Positions 1,164 to 60,592 of a DNA stretch of 64,000 bases are shown here, piece by piece. Under the pieces are notes generated by a model, which made no database searches, was not told the origin of the DNA, and saw only the letters and a program-made list of their open reading frames with translations. A program made the position numbers and the translations under genes. Source of the DNA: Thermosipho ferrireducens (GTDB lineage Bacteria > Thermotogota > Thermotogae > Thermotogales > Fervidobacteriaceae); assembly GCF_017358165.1 (NCBI RefSeq), contig NZ_CP071446.1:1798001-1862000 (forward strand), written 5' to 3'. How positions within the stretch are numbered: the first letter of the stretch is position 1; each line of letters opens with the position of its first letter.

Positions 1164-2536
1164 TCTTTGTACCCTCCCACTACTATTTTGTTGTTTTCTA
1201 ACTTTAAAACGGCCTTTTTCAAAGCCACGTTTATATAATGTTTCAAATTTTGAACCACCACTTCTACACCTGGATGAATAATTTTTCTCGCCACAATTTT
1301 CGCATTACTTTTGGTATTGGTAATAATCTCTTCTATTTCATGCAACCTCTTAATATTTTTTTCCAGTTGCTCTCGAACTGCTATTAAAGTGGAAGCAGAT
1401 TTTGAAAAAAGTTTCATCTTATCTTCGGGAATATCTACTTTAGCTTCTTTCAGTTTTTTATACTGCTTTACAACCTTTAACAACTTCTCCACGTTTGATT
1501 TGTCTAATGCTATTTGTGTTTTCAACAATCTCATTTCTTCAATAATATATGGAGGAATCCCTACTTCCACGTGAGTTGAAACAGCTATTTCAGAGCCTAT
1601 TTCATCAACTTCTATCGTAAGACCAGCTATATACTCTCCTCCCACAACAACTCCCTTTCCATCTTTAGAAATTATACTCCCTGTTACTTTCACGTGACAG
1701 TTTGAAAGTTGATCAGTAAAATAAAGATTTCTCGCTTCAATATTCGCCCCTTCCGCATAATTTACAAAAACATCACCACTGGCTTTTATTAACCCTTTTT
1801 CACGTGCTTTCACGCCAAAAATTGTCACGTTTCCTTCCAGAGAAATGACTGTAGCAGCTTCCACAACACCCTCTATGTTTATATTACTTTTTGCTCTCAC
1901 AACAAACCCCGGCCTCACATCACCTTTTATCACAACTGTACCAGGGAAATCTATATTGCCGGTTGAATAATCAACATTACCCTCCACTTCGAGAGTTTCG
2001 TCTACATCTATAAAATTTTCTTCTTTGTCAACCCGTAACATTCCTTCTATCTTTGAAGTGATAATTTTACCATCATCAGACAACACCACATTGCTTCCTA
2101 ATTTAATTTCAGCCTCTTTGCCTGGAGTAGGTGGAACATCTTCACCAAGTACATTTTTCCCGGCTTCACCAGGGGTTGGAGGAATAATAGTAGCTATCCT
2201 CTGACCTGGCTTTACTATTATTCTTTTATGTGTCAGAAACTCACGAAAATTTACCTTTTTATCAGTTACCACATTTTCTGAATGGAAATCCTCAAATTCT
2301 ACCCTTCCATCTTTTCCATCATGTGGTGGTGTACCTTCCGCTACTTTTATAGGAACTTCGTATTCTGGAAACTCGCAAAGCCTAACAATAGCATTTTTAT
2401 CTATCCCATAAACAACTCCTTTTTCTGACAAAGCTTCATATATTTCTTTTGGAGTAACTTTATCGTCATCCCTGGTTTTTCTTAGCATAACACTTGCACT
2501 CATTCTATCCTGGGAAATCTGCACATCTATTATCAT
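1160..2536 (-). CDS. FapA-like (DUF342) polymer-forming protein
   Basis: 458 residues with the layout of the DUF342/FapA family. The N-terminal part carries the typical G-T-P-P-H-D-G-K-D-G segment (about 65-90). A middle region (about 175-330) of short repeating strands rich in V, I and G suggests a right-handed beta-helix. A charged coiled coil follows (about 330-415). Family members are linked to cell-surface or flagellar assembly, but the biochemical role is unsettled. The gene sits between manA (4-base overlap) and the Omp-alpha-like gene (20-base gap), which fits an envelope role. There is no signal peptide, so the protein is probably cytosolic. Confidence 0.82.
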   Translation of the reverse strand: MIIDVQISQDRMSASVMLRKTRDDDKVTPKEIYEALSEKGVVYGIDKNAIVRLCEFPEYEVPIKVAEGTPPHDGKDGRVEFEDFHSENVVTDKKVNFREFLTHKRIIVKPGQRIATIIPPTPGEAGKNVLGEDVPPTPGKEAEIKLGSNVVLSDDGKIITSKIEGMLRVDKEENFIDVDETLEVEGNVDYSTGNIDFPGTVVIKGDVRPGFVVRAKSNINIEGVVEAATVISLEGNVTIFGVKAREKGLIKASGDVFVNYAEGANIEARNLYFTDQLSNCHVKVTGSIISKDGKGVVVGGEYIAGLTIEVDEIGSEIAVSTHVEVGIPPYIIEEMRLLKTQIALDKSNVEKLLKVVKQYKKLKEAKVDIPEDKMKLFSKSASTLIAVREQLEKNIKRLHEIEEIITNTKSNAKIVARKIIHPGVEVVVQNLKHYINVALKKAVLKLENNKIVVGGYKE

Positions 2537-2556
2537 TCTCTCACCTACTAAAAATT

Positions 2557-3942
2557 TTATTGTTTAACCCAAACTAATATAATAGCGGAAATAGCAGCTA
2601 TTCCAGAAATAATAGTTAACGTCCACAATGTTTTTATATCATCACTTAAATTCGTCATTTTTTCCGTAACTACGTCAAAAGTATTTTCAACTTTTTTATC
2701 AAACGATTTTAATTGCTCAACATCATCAACCAGAGTACTGAGTTTCTCAACACCAATTCCGCTACTTTCGAATGTAGACAAACGGGCATTTAGTTCATTT
2801 ATTTGATTTTTTATAGCATCAATATCATATATCTTTTTTTCCAAAAATTGCGTTCTGGATTCTATCTGGTCGTACCTGTTTTCAATGATTGCGAATTTAT
2901 TAACAACATTTCGAACTGTAAGAACATCTATTCCCTCCAATTTTTTCCTCAATATATCGAGATCCCCGGAAATAGCCTGCAAGTTTGAAAGCATTGTCTC
3001 TAATTCATCAACTTTACTTTCCAGATCTGGTATCTTACTAACATATGATAACTGTGAAGGTTTTATGTTTTTCAAAGAAGTGTAAAGCTTTTCAACTAAC
3101 GCTAATCTTGTTGAAACTTCGGCTATCCTCTCATTTAACGTTGACACTTCTGCAGGAAGGTTCTCTATTTTTTTGTTTATATCACTTATATAAGACATAT
3201 TCTTTGCCTGTTCTTCAAGAAAATTTGTTTTTAATTCGTTTGTTTCTTTTTCAAGGATACTTATTCTCTTGCTTAAATCTCCCAGATCTTCTACTTTCTT
3301 CAATCTTTCATCCAAGCTTCTAAATTGTGCGCTATAAGCTTCAGAAAGTCTTGTAAGTTCCAGAGATATAGAATTTAAATCATCAAGTGTTACGTACTTA
3401 GATTTCAATTCATTTTCTATAAAACCAACTTTTTTTGAAAGTTCAACAATGTTTTGATTTTTGATCTGACTTTCAATATAACTATTTTTTTCCAGTATAG
3501 CCGTGAGCATACTTTCTATCTGATTCACTTTTAGAACCACATCAGACGCAGATGACATAAACTTTTCAACACGTAATAAATCATTTAGCATATTTTTTTG
3601 CTGTTGTTCAACTCTACTCAATCTTTCATCCACGCCTGAAATAAGACTTTTATTGAGATTTATATCATCATCTATAGAAGCAATTCTTTTTTCTATATTC
3701 TTTATTGCAAGAAGATTGAAATTCTGAATAATTGTATATAAATACCTGGCAACATCGAGTTTCGTGATGAGAAGTGATGGTTTAAAATTACCATTTTCAT
3801 CAAGTTCCATAATACGACTCTCCACTAAAAATTGTACCGCTTTATACTCAGGAACAAGCGGGGAAAGGTCCGATATGCTAACTTCAGCTGCAAATACACT
3901 TACCAATGTCAGAATAAACAGAAACACTAAAATTTTTTTCAT
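2557..3942 (-). CDS. Omp-alpha-like SLH/coiled-coil envelope spacer
   Basis: 461 residues. A signal peptide (1-18, KKILVFLFILTLVSVFA) is followed by one SLH-type domain (about 22-85), a long heptad-rich coiled coil (about 85-430) and a single C-terminal membrane helix ending in WVKQ. This is the layout of Thermotoga Omp-alpha, a rod that holds the outer toga to the cell body: the SLH domain binds the cell wall and the C-terminal helix anchors in the outer membrane. Identification rests on architecture, because coiled-coil sequence alone is not diagnostic. The start overlaps the stop of the upstream PEGA gene by 4 bases. Confidence 0.85.
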   Translation of the reverse strand: MKKILVFLFILTLVSVFAAEVSISDLSPLVPEYKAVQFLVESRIMELDENGNFKPSLLITKLDVARYLYTIIQNFNLLAIKNIEKRIASIDDDINLNKSLISGVDERLSRVEQQQKNMLNDLLRVEKFMSSASDVVLKVNQIESMLTAILEKNSYIESQIKNQNIVELSKKVGFIENELKSKYVTLDDLNSISLELTRLSEAYSAQFRSLDERLKKVEDLGDLSKRISILEKETNELKTNFLEEQAKNMSYISDINKKIENLPAEVSTLNERIAEVSTRLALVEKLYTSLKNIKPSQLSYVSKIPDLESKVDELETMLSNLQAISGDLDILRKKLEGIDVLTVRNVVNKFAIIENRYDQIESRTQFLEKKIYDIDAIKNQINELNARLSTFESSGIGVEKLSTLVDDVEQLKSFDKKVENTFDVVTEKMTNLSDDIKTLWTLTIISGIAAISAIILVWVKQ

Positions 3943-5321
3943 TTATAATCCCCTCCATACACCTCGTTTATTACTCCCTGTTGTATTACTACTTCTCTGG
4001 ATGATACAACTCTTCCACCATAATAAAATTCTACCTTGTGTTTGCCAGAAGATAAAGGATAAATATATATTGGAGTTCTTCCTATTAATTTCCCATCCAC
4101 ATAAACTTCAAATCTTCCGTTAGCGTAAAAATTGACAGCACACTTATCACTATCATCAAAAACAATGTTATTCAATATGGTTAAAGTCTTCTCTTCTTTA
4201 TCGCTCAAAACTCTTATACTTTCACCAGATTCAACATTTAACAACGCAGGTGTTTTAAACCTAAATCCCTTGTATTCAACATAACCATCCTGCATGACAA
4301 CAACACTTAAAGACTCAGGATATTCTTCTATAGAACCATCTGTAAACCCATACCACTGGCCCTTTTCTGATACAACCCTTGTAAAATAAAGTCTCTGCGG
4401 AACTTTCTTGCTGCTTACAGGCACACCATCAAGATAAATTTGTATGTTATTGTTAATCTTTGAGAAAACGGCTGTTCGCAAATTATAACTATAAGTTTGA
4501 ACACCTTTCTGTATCTCAAGAGATTCTTCAATTTCTTTATAACCATCACTTGATACTTTTATCGTATACGTCCCTGGAAGAAGTACAAATTCCGCCGGCG
4601 CATTTTTAGTAATTGCATTCACTGTAACAACGGCATTTTCCGGATATCCGTAAATTAATAAATGCGAATACTGCGTTTCATTAACATTATAGGTATAAAT
4701 TTCCTCCTCAGGCACATGTATAACCTGAACTGGTGATGCATAAAAGGTTTCAAGAATCTTCAACGTATAACTCCCTGGCTCAACTTCAAGTTTTGCTGGA
4801 ATATCAATTATTTTATTATTGAACAAAGCTTTTATATTGTTTGAGCTTTTTAAAATAAGTGTCACCTTATTTTTTAACGTAACTTCTATCTTTCTTAATT
4901 CGGAAGGTTTTAAATTCAGTCTCATCTTTTTTTTCAAATAACCCTCTTTTTGTATTTCCAGAATAAGTTCTCCGCTACTAACCTCAAATACCCCTGGAGT
5001 TTCACCTAAAAAACTCCCATTTATATAAACCTTCGCTCTTGATGGAATAGTATTCAATGCAAGATAAGCCGGTAACACAAGACTGGCGTTCACAACTCCA
5101 TCTGTTGCTACAGAAGTTTCAAAGGGAGCATATCCTGGCTTTACTATTTTTAATAGGCCAGGATACTCCAGATTTTCAATAACAAGTTTTCCAGTTTCAG
5201 GTATCTTTTCAACTAAATTTTCATTCCAGTAAACAAGGGCGCCAGGCTCCGATATTACAACCAGTGTTCCAGCAATAAAAATGGAACTTAAAAAGAGTAA
5301 AAATAACACCGCTTTTTTCAT
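3939..5321 (-). CDS. exported PEGA-domain repeat protein
   Basis: 460 residues with a hydrophobic signal peptide (about 1-17) followed by several beta-rich PEGA-type modules. Each has the pattern P-x-x-A-x-V-Y-I-N-G-x-x-x-G-x-T-P; clear copies lie near residues 92-118 and close to the C terminus (YVDGKLIGRTPIYIYPLSSG). PEGA modules occur in surface and periplasmic proteins and are assumed to bind other proteins or sugars; no catalytic motif is seen. The gene overlaps its neighbours on both sides by 4 bases, linking it to the MarR regulator and the Omp-alpha-like rod. A periplasmic or cell-surface partner of that rod is an inference from context only. Confidence 0.82.
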   Translation of the reverse strand: MKKAVLFLLFLSSIFIAGTLVVISEPGALVYWNENLVEKIPETGKLVIENLEYPGLLKIVKPGYAPFETSVATDGVVNASLVLPAYLALNTIPSRAKVYINGSFLGETPGVFEVSSGELILEIQKEGYLKKKMRLNLKPSELRKIEVTLKNKVTLILKSSNNIKALFNNKIIDIPAKLEVEPGSYTLKILETFYASPVQVIHVPEEEIYTYNVNETQYSHLLIYGYPENAVVTVNAITKNAPAEFVLLPGTYTIKVSSDGYKEIEESLEIQKGVQTYSYNLRTAVFSKINNNIQIYLDGVPVSSKKVPQRLYFTRVVSEKGQWYGFTDGSIEEYPESLSVVVMQDGYVEYKGFRFKTPALLNVESGESIRVLSDKEEKTLTILNNIVFDDSDKCAVNFYANGRFEVYVDGKLIGRTPIYIYPLSSGKHKVEFYYGGRVVSSREVVIQQGVINEVYGGDYK

Positions 5322-17728: not shown

Positions 17729-18095
17729 GCGAAGTTAGCAAGATTGGCAAGAGTTAGCGAGGTTGGCAAAGCTTGTCATGATCACGAAGTGCAAAGGATC
17801 TTGCGAGAGTTAGTAAAAAAATAAGATCCTTCGTCGCTCTCGCTCCTCAGGATGACATCCCCCTCATCATTTCATTCCTTGGGATGACACTTTCTTTTTA
17901 TGTCATTCTGAGGAGCAGGAAAGCAAGGAATCCCCTTCTCATATCATTCCGAGGAGCAGGCAGGCGAGGAATCCACCGCCCTTGTCATTCCGAACCCGAA
18001 GGGTGAGGAATCCTGTATTTAGCAAGATTGGCAAGGTCTGTCCTGAACACGGAATACGAAGGATCTTGTAAATGCTGGCAAGGTTAGTAAGAACT
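17729..18095. repeat. mosaic dispersed-repeat block 1
   Basis: This gene-free stretch is built from two kinds of sequence. The first is a run of 9-10 base units of form GCRAGRTTR (17729-17774, five units, again near 18020 and 18075). The second is an element in both orientations, reading GTCATTCYGAGGAGC...GAGGAATCC or its complement GGATCTT...GCTCCTCAGGATGAC. At least five copies of the second kind occur here. Open readings across it are artefacts of the repeat. The same modules recur at 19080-19195, 32010-32370 and 60281-60592. Confidence 0.85.
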
Positions 18096-18473
18096 GGAAA
18101 AATAGAGTCTATGCTCCTCGATATTTTGCCTTCTATAAAAAACATTATAATTACATTTGAATTAAATATAAATTTTTTGAGAGTTAAAAGTATATAAAAA
18201 TTAAAGAATAGCAACATTATCTGTATTCGCTTTGTTTAGTTGAAAATATCACTAACTATTTGGCATTGACAAATCGATTTCAATTTTGTAATCTTTTTGT
18301 TGAGATAATATAAATGTTCAAATCGTATGAATTATCACATTACACTTGAATATAATTATTTTGCAAATAACAGGCAGATATTACGTAACTAAATTACTTT
18401 AGTCATATAATAACTCAAAGTTGGATTAAAAATACAAATTTCTCTACTACATTATACATGAGGAGGGATAGCA
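18096..18473. other. AT-rich spacer with a candidate promoter
   Basis: No gene is seen here. The stretch is visibly richer in A and T than its surroundings. On the plus strand TTGACA (18266-18271), 17 bases and TAATCT (18289-18294) form a possible promoter for the small genes starting at 18474. It would give a leader of about 170 bases. Nothing else recognisable was found in the leader. Confidence 0.45.
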
Positions 18474-18716
18474 ATGGCGATACCAGTGTCAGGCAGGATA
18501 AGCTTTTTAGGGGGTAACCGTGGATATTATACGAGGGAGCAGATAGAACATATAAGGTTTAATAGAATGTATCAGCATGCACGTGCTTATGCATGAAAAA
18601 CTGTATCAAAATTTGCTTTAAAAAAAGGTATGAATTCAGGAGCTCTTGGAGCTATTGGTGGAGCCGTTATTGGTTTTCTTAATGATGGTGGCGTTATTTC
18701 TTATATAGCGCAATAG
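18474..18716 (+). pseudogene. bacteriocin-like small protein interrupted by in-frame TGA
   Basis: An ATG with an excellent ribosome site (GAGGAGGG) opens a 40-codon reading that ends in TGA (18594-18596). The same frame continues for 39 sense codons to TAG at 18714-18716. The second half is small-residue rich, with a GxxxGxxxG zipper (GALGAIGGAVIG), as in class II or circular bacteriocin peptides. The first half contains a double-glycine pair (SFLGG) and is basic. If TGA stood for Trp (one base from TGG), the product would be 80 residues. Options are nonsense mutation, sequencing error, stop read-through, or two peptides with restart at ATG 18630. I recognise no named family. Confidence 0.5.
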
Positions 18717-18718
18717 TT

Positions 18719-18934
18719 ATGGGAACTTATTCATGTATTGCCAGATTTGAGGTATTAATTGAAAAAATCCTTTCAGGCTCCAAAAAAGTTCTCTTCTTTA
18801 TAATTAGCGCACTGGCTTTGTTCACTTCTGTAATATTTTTCGGATGGGTAATTGTAGGAGAGACTTACTTTAGCTTATACGTTATTTTCTTGATCATTCT
18901 CTGGTTTGGATTGTTTAAAAGAAAGCATCGTTAG
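18719..18934 (+). CDS. small two-helix membrane protein
   Basis: 71 residues with two hydrophobic helices (about 24-46 and 50-66) and a basic C terminus (FKRKHR). It begins 2 bases after the stop of the bacteriocin-like reading and has no ribosome site of its own, so translation is probably coupled to that reading. Size, topology and position match immunity proteins of small bacteriocins. That role is inferred from context; I see no family signature. Confidence 0.55.
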   Translation: MGTYSCIARFEVLIEKILSGSKKVLFFIISALALFTSVIFFGWVIVGETYFSLYVIFLIILWFGLFKRKHR

Positions 18935-19079: not shown

Positions 19080-19195
19080 TTGTCATTCCGAACGTATGTG
19101 AGGGGGATGTCATCCTGAGGAACAAAGTGACGAAGGATCTTATTCTTTTTACCAACCTCGCTAATCTCGCCAACCCTTGCCAATCTCGCCAGATT
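19080..19195. repeat. mosaic dispersed-repeat block 2
   Basis: Contains TGTCATTCCGAACG...GAGG, then ATGTCATCCTGAGGAACAAAGTGACGAAGGATCTTATT, described here by its modules only. A run of complement units (CCAACCTCGC, TAATCTCGCC, AACCCTTGCC, AATCTCGCC) corresponds to GCRAGRTTR on the other strand. Blocks 1 and 2 bracket the small bacteriocin-like genes. Confidence 0.8.
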
Positions 19196-32009: not shown

Positions 32010-32370
32010 GGCGAGGTTAGCCTTCACCCATGTCATTCCGAGGAGCGTAGCGACGAAGAATCCATCGCCCCTGTCATTCCGAACCCGAAGGGTGAGGAAT
32101 CTTATTATTAGCAAGGTTGGCAAGTGTTAGCGAGAGTTGGTGGAATAAGATCCTCCGCCTACCCGCTCCTCAGGATGACAAAAGAGGAGAATGTCATACC
32201 TGGAAGCGAGAAAGGCGAGGAATTTCCCCTTCGTGTCATTCCGAGGAACGTAGTGACAAGGAATCTTATTATTAGCGATGGTTAGCGAGATTGACAAGTG
32301 TTGGTAAAATAAGATCCTCCGCCTACCCGCTCCTCAGGATGACAAAAAATGGCAAGATTGGCAGGGGTAA
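32010..32370. repeat. mosaic dispersed-repeat block 3 with internal duplication
   Basis: Gene-free stretch (31968-32404) filled by the same modules as block 1: GTCATTCCGAGGARCGTAGYGAC elements, their inverted forms, and GCRAGRTTR units. Two 40-base segments, 32144-32183 and 32308-32347, are identical over their full length. Each is preceded by TTATTATTAGC and related units, so a unit of about 164 bases has been duplicated in tandem. Confidence 0.85.
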
Positions 32371-60280: not shown

Positions 60281-60592
60281 ACTAACCCTCGCAAGATCCT
60301 TCGCATTTCGTGCTCAAGACAGGCCTCGCTAACTCTCGCTAATAATAAGATTCCTCGTCACTACGTTCCTCGGAATGACACTGGTGGGGGATTTCTGCCT
60401 TTTCCTGCCCCTCGGAATGACACAGATGAGGGAATTCCTTGCTTTCTTGTTCTTTGAAATGAAAGCCTCTTTTTCTGTCATCCCGAGCGTATGCGAGGGA
60501 TCTTATTCTTTTTACTAACTCTCGCAAGATCCTTCGCACTTTGTGCTCAGGACAAGCCTTGCTAATCTCGCCAACCTTGCCAATAAGGATCA
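60281..60592. repeat. mosaic dispersed-repeat block 4
   Basis: No gene. The block is framed by an imperfect direct repeat of about 65 bases (from 60281 and from 60514, each reading ACTAAC-YCTCGCAAGATCCTTCGCA at the start) with GCRAGRTTR-type units. Between them are GATTCCTCGTCACTACGTTCC and similar elements in both orientations. An open reading across 60339-60593 is a repeat artefact. The repeat edge coincides with the stop of the acyltransferase gene. Confidence 0.85.

What the first reader, a model, noticed from the sequence alone, without database searches (positions are those of the whole stretch)
18474..18934. Interrupted bacteriocin-like gene with a coupled two-helix membrane protein
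A strong ribosome site opens an 80-codon frame broken by a single TGA at 18594. Its second half has the glycine-zipper look (GALGAIGGAVIG) of membrane-active peptides, and a double glycine lies near residue 14. A 71-residue two-helix protein follows after 2 bases with no ribosome site of its own, like an immunity gene. The pair sits between two repeat blocks in an otherwise packed genome. It could be a bacteriocin locus inactivated by Trp to stop, a read-through gene, or a two-peptide system made by restart at 18630.
Basis: partly seen in the sequence, partly recalled or inferred. Interest (0 to 1): 0.72.

Follow-up and report, generated by a model that had tools for sequence, protein, structure and literature searches.

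The report
Decayed two-gene membrane peptide cassette
The interrupted small gene and the membrane protein behind it are real, but they look like the broken remains of a rare two-gene unit, possibly once a small antibacterial peptide with its protective partner, and not a working read-through or two-peptide system.

Summary
A strong ribosome site opens an 80-codon frame (18474-18716) cut by one TGA at 18594-18596, and a 71-codon membrane protein frame (18719-18934) starts two bases after its end. The window lies in a 1.98-Mb genome that I place in the Thermotogae.

The second frame has a clear relative in one of 103 class genomes (G055): a protein made of two tandem units. A profile from those two units alone finds the window frame at E=5e-16. 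The homology begins at nt 18686, 11 codons before the ATG, inside the end of the first frame and in another reading frame. The first transmembrane segment is missing. ORF2 is therefore a 5'-truncated remnant, most simply explained by a deletion that fused two genes. In G055, peptide-like frames with a GNR-YYT start and glycine-rich ends lie beside the same membrane protein; most are broken too. Their link to ORF1 is suggestive only.

Codon usage favours past translation of ORF1 beyond the TGA. The genome has no SelA. The window's promoter copy is the most diverged of seven compared.

Verdict: a decaying cassette of an unnamed, very rare family. Bacteriocin-immunity origin is plausible (about 0.4), not shown.

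The parts
17735..18080 (.). Upstream block of dispersed intergenic repeats
   Evidence: Repeat and pattern scans; same motifs at 19.1, 32.0-32.3 and 60.4 kb
18141..18341 (+). Upstream module A, shared only with the region in front of a frameshifted ABC exporter at G000:C1:1915837
   Evidence: BLASTN 76% over 144 nt and alignment; no other copy found in the own genome
18388..18467 (+). Upstream module B, a diverged copy of an 80-bp promoter-like repeat of this genome; presumed -10 CATTAT at 18450-18455, SD GAGGAGGG at 18460-18467
   Evidence: Copies; alignment of seven copies, window copy 82-87% identical against 90-95% among the others
18474..18596 (+). ORF1 before the stop, 40 codons plus TGA; MAIPVSGRISFLGGNRGYYT...
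   Evidence: GNR-YYT shared with G055 copies, significance suggestive only
18597..18716 (+). ORF1 after the stop, 39 codons plus TAG, glycine-zipper segment; the last 10 codons (18684-18713) overlap the ORF2-family homology in another frame
   Evidence: codon score 0.46 for 18597-18683
18686..18934 (+). Remnant of the ORF2-family membrane unit; ATG reading starts at 18719; first helix of the unit absent
   Evidence: Profile of the two G055 units alone: E=5e-16; 11-codon extension before the ATG, 1 of 72146; 45-46% identity
19080..19195 (.). Downstream block of the same dispersed repeats, partly inverted relative to the upstream block
   Evidence: Inverted pairs I1-I5

Best explanation
The locus is the decayed remnant of a two-gene cassette. 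The first gene coded for a small cationic helical protein with a glycine-zipper membrane segment. The second coded for a small membrane protein with about four helices per unit. Two lesions broke it: an in-frame TGA in the first gene (shown), and a deletion that removed the end of gene 1 and the start of gene 2 and joined them out of frame (inferred from the homology boundary). If anything is made now it is a 40-residue stub and possibly part of the membrane protein. The ancestral function most likely resembled a membrane-active peptide with a membrane partner that protected from it or helped export it; that last step is inference (about 0.4).
For: ORF2 homology to G055 units E=5e-16 from an independent profile, beginning before the ATG and inside the ORF1 tail in another frame, with the first helix missing. 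ORF1 stop; coding-like codon use on the far side of the stop. No SelA. ORF2 codon score below the 5th percentile of genes. Window copy of module B most diverged, with changes in the presumed -35 and in the palindrome. In G055, GNR-YYT peptide-like frames beside the same membrane protein, most broken by stops or frameshifts.
Against: ORF1-G055 similarity is not significant by itself (E=0.46-1.1). Only one relative is known and it is a draft MAG, so some of its lesions could be assembly errors. ORF2 is still an open frame with a start codon. The deletion is inferred from one family with two reference units, not from an intact close relative.
Confidence: 0.78

Rival explanations
1. ORF1 is intact in the living organism (the TGA is an assembly error or a very recent lesion) and works as a short membrane peptide with ORF2 as a compact partner.
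For: Only one internal stop in 80 codons; strong SD; ORF2 open; the frame after the stop is coding-like.
Against: ORF2 homology starts before its ATG and lacks its first helix; the end of ORF1 is out-of-frame ORF2-family DNA; diverged promoter copy.
Confidence: 0.1
2. The TGA is read through, or translation restarts at 18630, so that one transcript yields two products.
For: The frame continues after the stop; an ATG lies at 18630.
Against: No SelA; no properly spaced SD at 18630; the 11 codons between stop and ATG are already coding-like in the same frame; no relative keeps the stop.
Confidence: 0.04
3. ORF1 is unrelated to the G055 peptides: a chance or orphan frame next to a truncated ORF2 fragment.
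For: ORF1-G055 similarity is not significant by itself; stop-free 29-codon intergenic frames reach its codon score about 5% of the time.
Against: Same neighbour in G055, shared GNR-YYT and glycine-rich layout, best-ranked hit in the window; strong SD.
Confidence: 0.15
4. A functional short protein: the 40-residue product of the first frame alone is the gene, and the rest is non-coding.
For: Strong SD and a complete 40-codon frame.
Against: The first half has the weaker codon score (0.07 against 0.46 after the stop); the G055 frames continue into a glycine-rich part.
Confidence: 0.05

Closest known systems
G055:C48 cassette (same class; unnamed family)
   Same: Membrane unit with 45-46% identity over the ORF2 remnant; peptide-like GNR-YYT frame directly upstream.
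   Different: G055 has two complete units in one 252-aa protein with its own start; the window has one truncated unit. G055 carries three peptide-like frames on that contig and a fourth elsewhere.
Unmodified class II bacteriocins with glycine-zipper helices and small membrane immunity proteins (general knowledge)
   Same: Small, cationic, helical, glycine-zipper segment, followed by a small membrane protein gene.
   Different: No family hit, no classical double-glycine leader (GG at residue 14 only), no peptidase-type exporter beside it.
Two-protein glycine-zipper bacteriocin of Caulobacter (PMC5380434)
   Same: Glycine-zipper proteins used against neighbours in a Gram-negative-type bacterium, per the abstract found.
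   Different: Only the type of motif is shared; no sequence comparison was made and no such system is shown here.

Membership tests
Class II bacteriocin with double-glycine leader | Sequence homology of ORF1 to a known bacteriocin family | tested here: not met
   No Pfam, NCBIfam, PHROGs or PADLOC hit
Class II bacteriocin with double-glycine leader | Leader ending in GG before a mature peptide | tested here: inconclusive
   GG at residues 13-14 in the window; G055 copies have VGN or none at that place
Class II bacteriocin with double-glycine leader | Dedicated ABC exporter with peptidase domain in the same cluster | tested here: not met
   None beside the locus; the ABC exporter sharing module A lies 99 kb away, lacks a peptidase domain hit and is frameshifted
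Class II bacteriocin with double-glycine leader | Antibacterial activity and specific immunity | not testable with these tools
   Needs expression and growth assays
ORF2/G055 membrane-unit family (defined here) | Sequence homology to the units | tested here: met
   E=5e-16 with a profile of the two G055 units alone
ORF2/G055 membrane-unit family (defined here) | Complete unit with the first helix | tested here: not met
   Match begins at profile position 33 of 127, after two stops
G055 GNR-YYT peptide family (defined here) | Sequence homology of ORF1 | tested here: inconclusive
   Best window hit but E=0.46-1.1; pairwise p=0.0002-0.012 for four of five variants, 0.31 for the fifth
Selenoprotein or stop read-through gene | Selenocysteine machinery (SelA) in the genome | tested here: not met
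   No SelA match; controls positive

The most novel reading that the evidence does not exclude
ORF1, ORF2 and the G055 array are remnants of an undescribed Thermotogae peptide-plus-membrane-protein conflict system, with peptide copies multiplied around one duplicated immunity-like protein and an ABC exporter under a shared promoter.
Probability: 0.25. Interest if true: 0.5.

Novelty: new member of a known kind. Interest (0 to 1): 0.27.

Why it matters
It shows that an apparent read-through or two-peptide gene is a fusion scar in a decayed cassette, and it points to a family of small proteins without a match in the current Pfam, NCBIfam, PHROGs and PADLOC libraries. If intact members turn up in thermophilic Thermotogae they would be candidates for peptide-based competition in a phylum where I found little literature on it. 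As it stands the locus itself is probably dead.

Tried and rejected
FlhA-like hit (L039, 38% identity): rejected as chance, because the scan was seeded on short exact words of ORF1 and IGFLNDGG occurs inside FlhA of a Ruminococcus MAG (the name FlhA is my reading of the sequence). Treponema/Spirochaetaceae hits share only about 18 residues around YYTREQIE inside longer proteins. Weak hits in other class genomes lie in broken or unrelated frames. No relatives in viral contigs, plasmids or phages, nor in 399 genomes sampled from another phylum (an empty result there shows little). PDB profile searches and the Foldseek search gave nothing usable. AlphaFold models are low-confidence: helices 21-51 and 55-71 for ORF1, four helices for the G055 unit. 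An empty site in relatives could not be shown: they keep M42-TauE but not S15 beside it.

Full report
What is there. The window is G000:C1:1798001-1862000 of a 1.98-Mb, one-contig genome. I place it in the Thermotogae from the neighbouring QueA, whose best PDB match by far is 1vky (that 1vky is from Thermotoga maritima, and hence the placement, is my own knowledge). The repeat blocks on both sides are dispersed intergenic repeats that recur elsewhere in the window, partly in inverted orientation around this locus.

ORF2 is a truncated member of a rare family. P0002 found one good relative in 101 genomes, G055:C48, at E=9.9e-8, and the profile found only these two convincingly among 103 class genomes. 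In G055 the protein is 252 aa, two tandem units. A profile of those two units alone, run on the six-frame window with stops masked, returns the window locus at E=5e-16; the next best place is at 0.018. The alignment begins at WWRYF, nt 18686, before the ATG at 18719 and after two stop codons. The 11 residues before the ATG (WWRYFLYSAIV) match both units so well that only one of 72,146 stop-free 11-mers in the window scores as high, presumably the segment itself. The first helix of the unit is absent. The end of ORF1 (DGGVISYIAQ) reads the same DNA in another frame. The simplest history is a deletion that joined the two genes; its exact ends are not defined.

ORF1. Read through the TGA, it has no family match. 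The G055 contig carries three frames with GNR-YYT or YTSEQLNRR starts, and another contig a fourth; most are cut by stops or frameshifts. One lies directly upstream of the membrane protein, as ORF1 does in the window. A profile of these copies ranks ORF1 first in the window but at E=0.46-1.1. Pairwise shuffles give p=0.0002-0.012 for four of five variants and 0.31 for the frameshift-joined copy. Homology is likely, not proven. Codon scores: the 29 codons after the TGA and before the scar score 0.46, against a gene median of 0.22 and an intergenic 95th percentile of 0.45; the 11 codons before the internal ATG score 0.37; the first half is ambiguous at 0.07; ORF2 lies below the 5th percentile of 80-codon gene stretches. 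This favours one ancestral frame across the TGA and disfavours restart at 18630. The genome has no SelA.

Upstream. The 80-bp module B belongs to a family of related promoter-like sequences in this genome. Genes behind other copies include a 2-hydroxyacid dehydrogenase, a UDP-glucose/GDP-mannose dehydrogenase and a TldD-type protein. The window copy is the most diverged of seven aligned, with changes in the presumed -35 region and in the palindrome AGTTATATGATAACT. Module A (18141-18341) has one other match, in front of an ABC exporter 99 kb away that is itself frameshifted beside a run of A. A shared promoter with an exporter would suit a secreted peptide, but this is circumstantial, since promoters here seem to be copied freely.

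Mechanism and verdict. Shown: the stop, the truncated ORF2, the homology boundary inside ORF1, the diverged promoter copy, no SelA. Inferred: the deletion, the homology of ORF1 to the G055 peptides, and the ancestral role as membrane-active peptide plus protective or export partner. I file it as a decayed cassette (0.78). It fails tested features of class II bacteriocins, so it is not filed as one, though the intact ancestor may have worked like one (about 0.4).

Noticed in passing
window 18388-18467; L031, L032, L033, L034, L035, L037 (G000): An 80-bp promoter-like repeat with the palindromes AGTTATATGATAACT and AACTCAGAGTT, a sigma-70-like -35/-10 (TTGATT-17-CATTAT) and an SD almost at the presumed transcript start precedes at least seven unrelated genes; it may be a regulon operator or a mobile promoter.
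   Followed up: partly
L036:5837-7562 (G000:C1:1915837-1917562): ABC exporter gene split by a frameshift beside a run of nine A, divergent from an S41 peptidase gene; its upstream region shares about 200 bp (module A) with the window locus only.
   Followed up: partly
L066 (G055:C48) 1640-4333: Three decayed GNR-YYT / YTSEQLNRR peptide-like frames, a duplicated membrane unit and a weakly matching SleB-type cell wall hydrolase fragment (Hydrolase_2, E=0.006, below cut-off) in one 4.3-kb contig.
   Followed up: partly
window 17735-18080, 19080-19195, 32032-32343, 60365-60421: Dispersed intergenic repeats of the GTCATTCTGAGGAGC / AAGATTGGCAAGAGTTAGC type, in both orientations.
   Followed up: no
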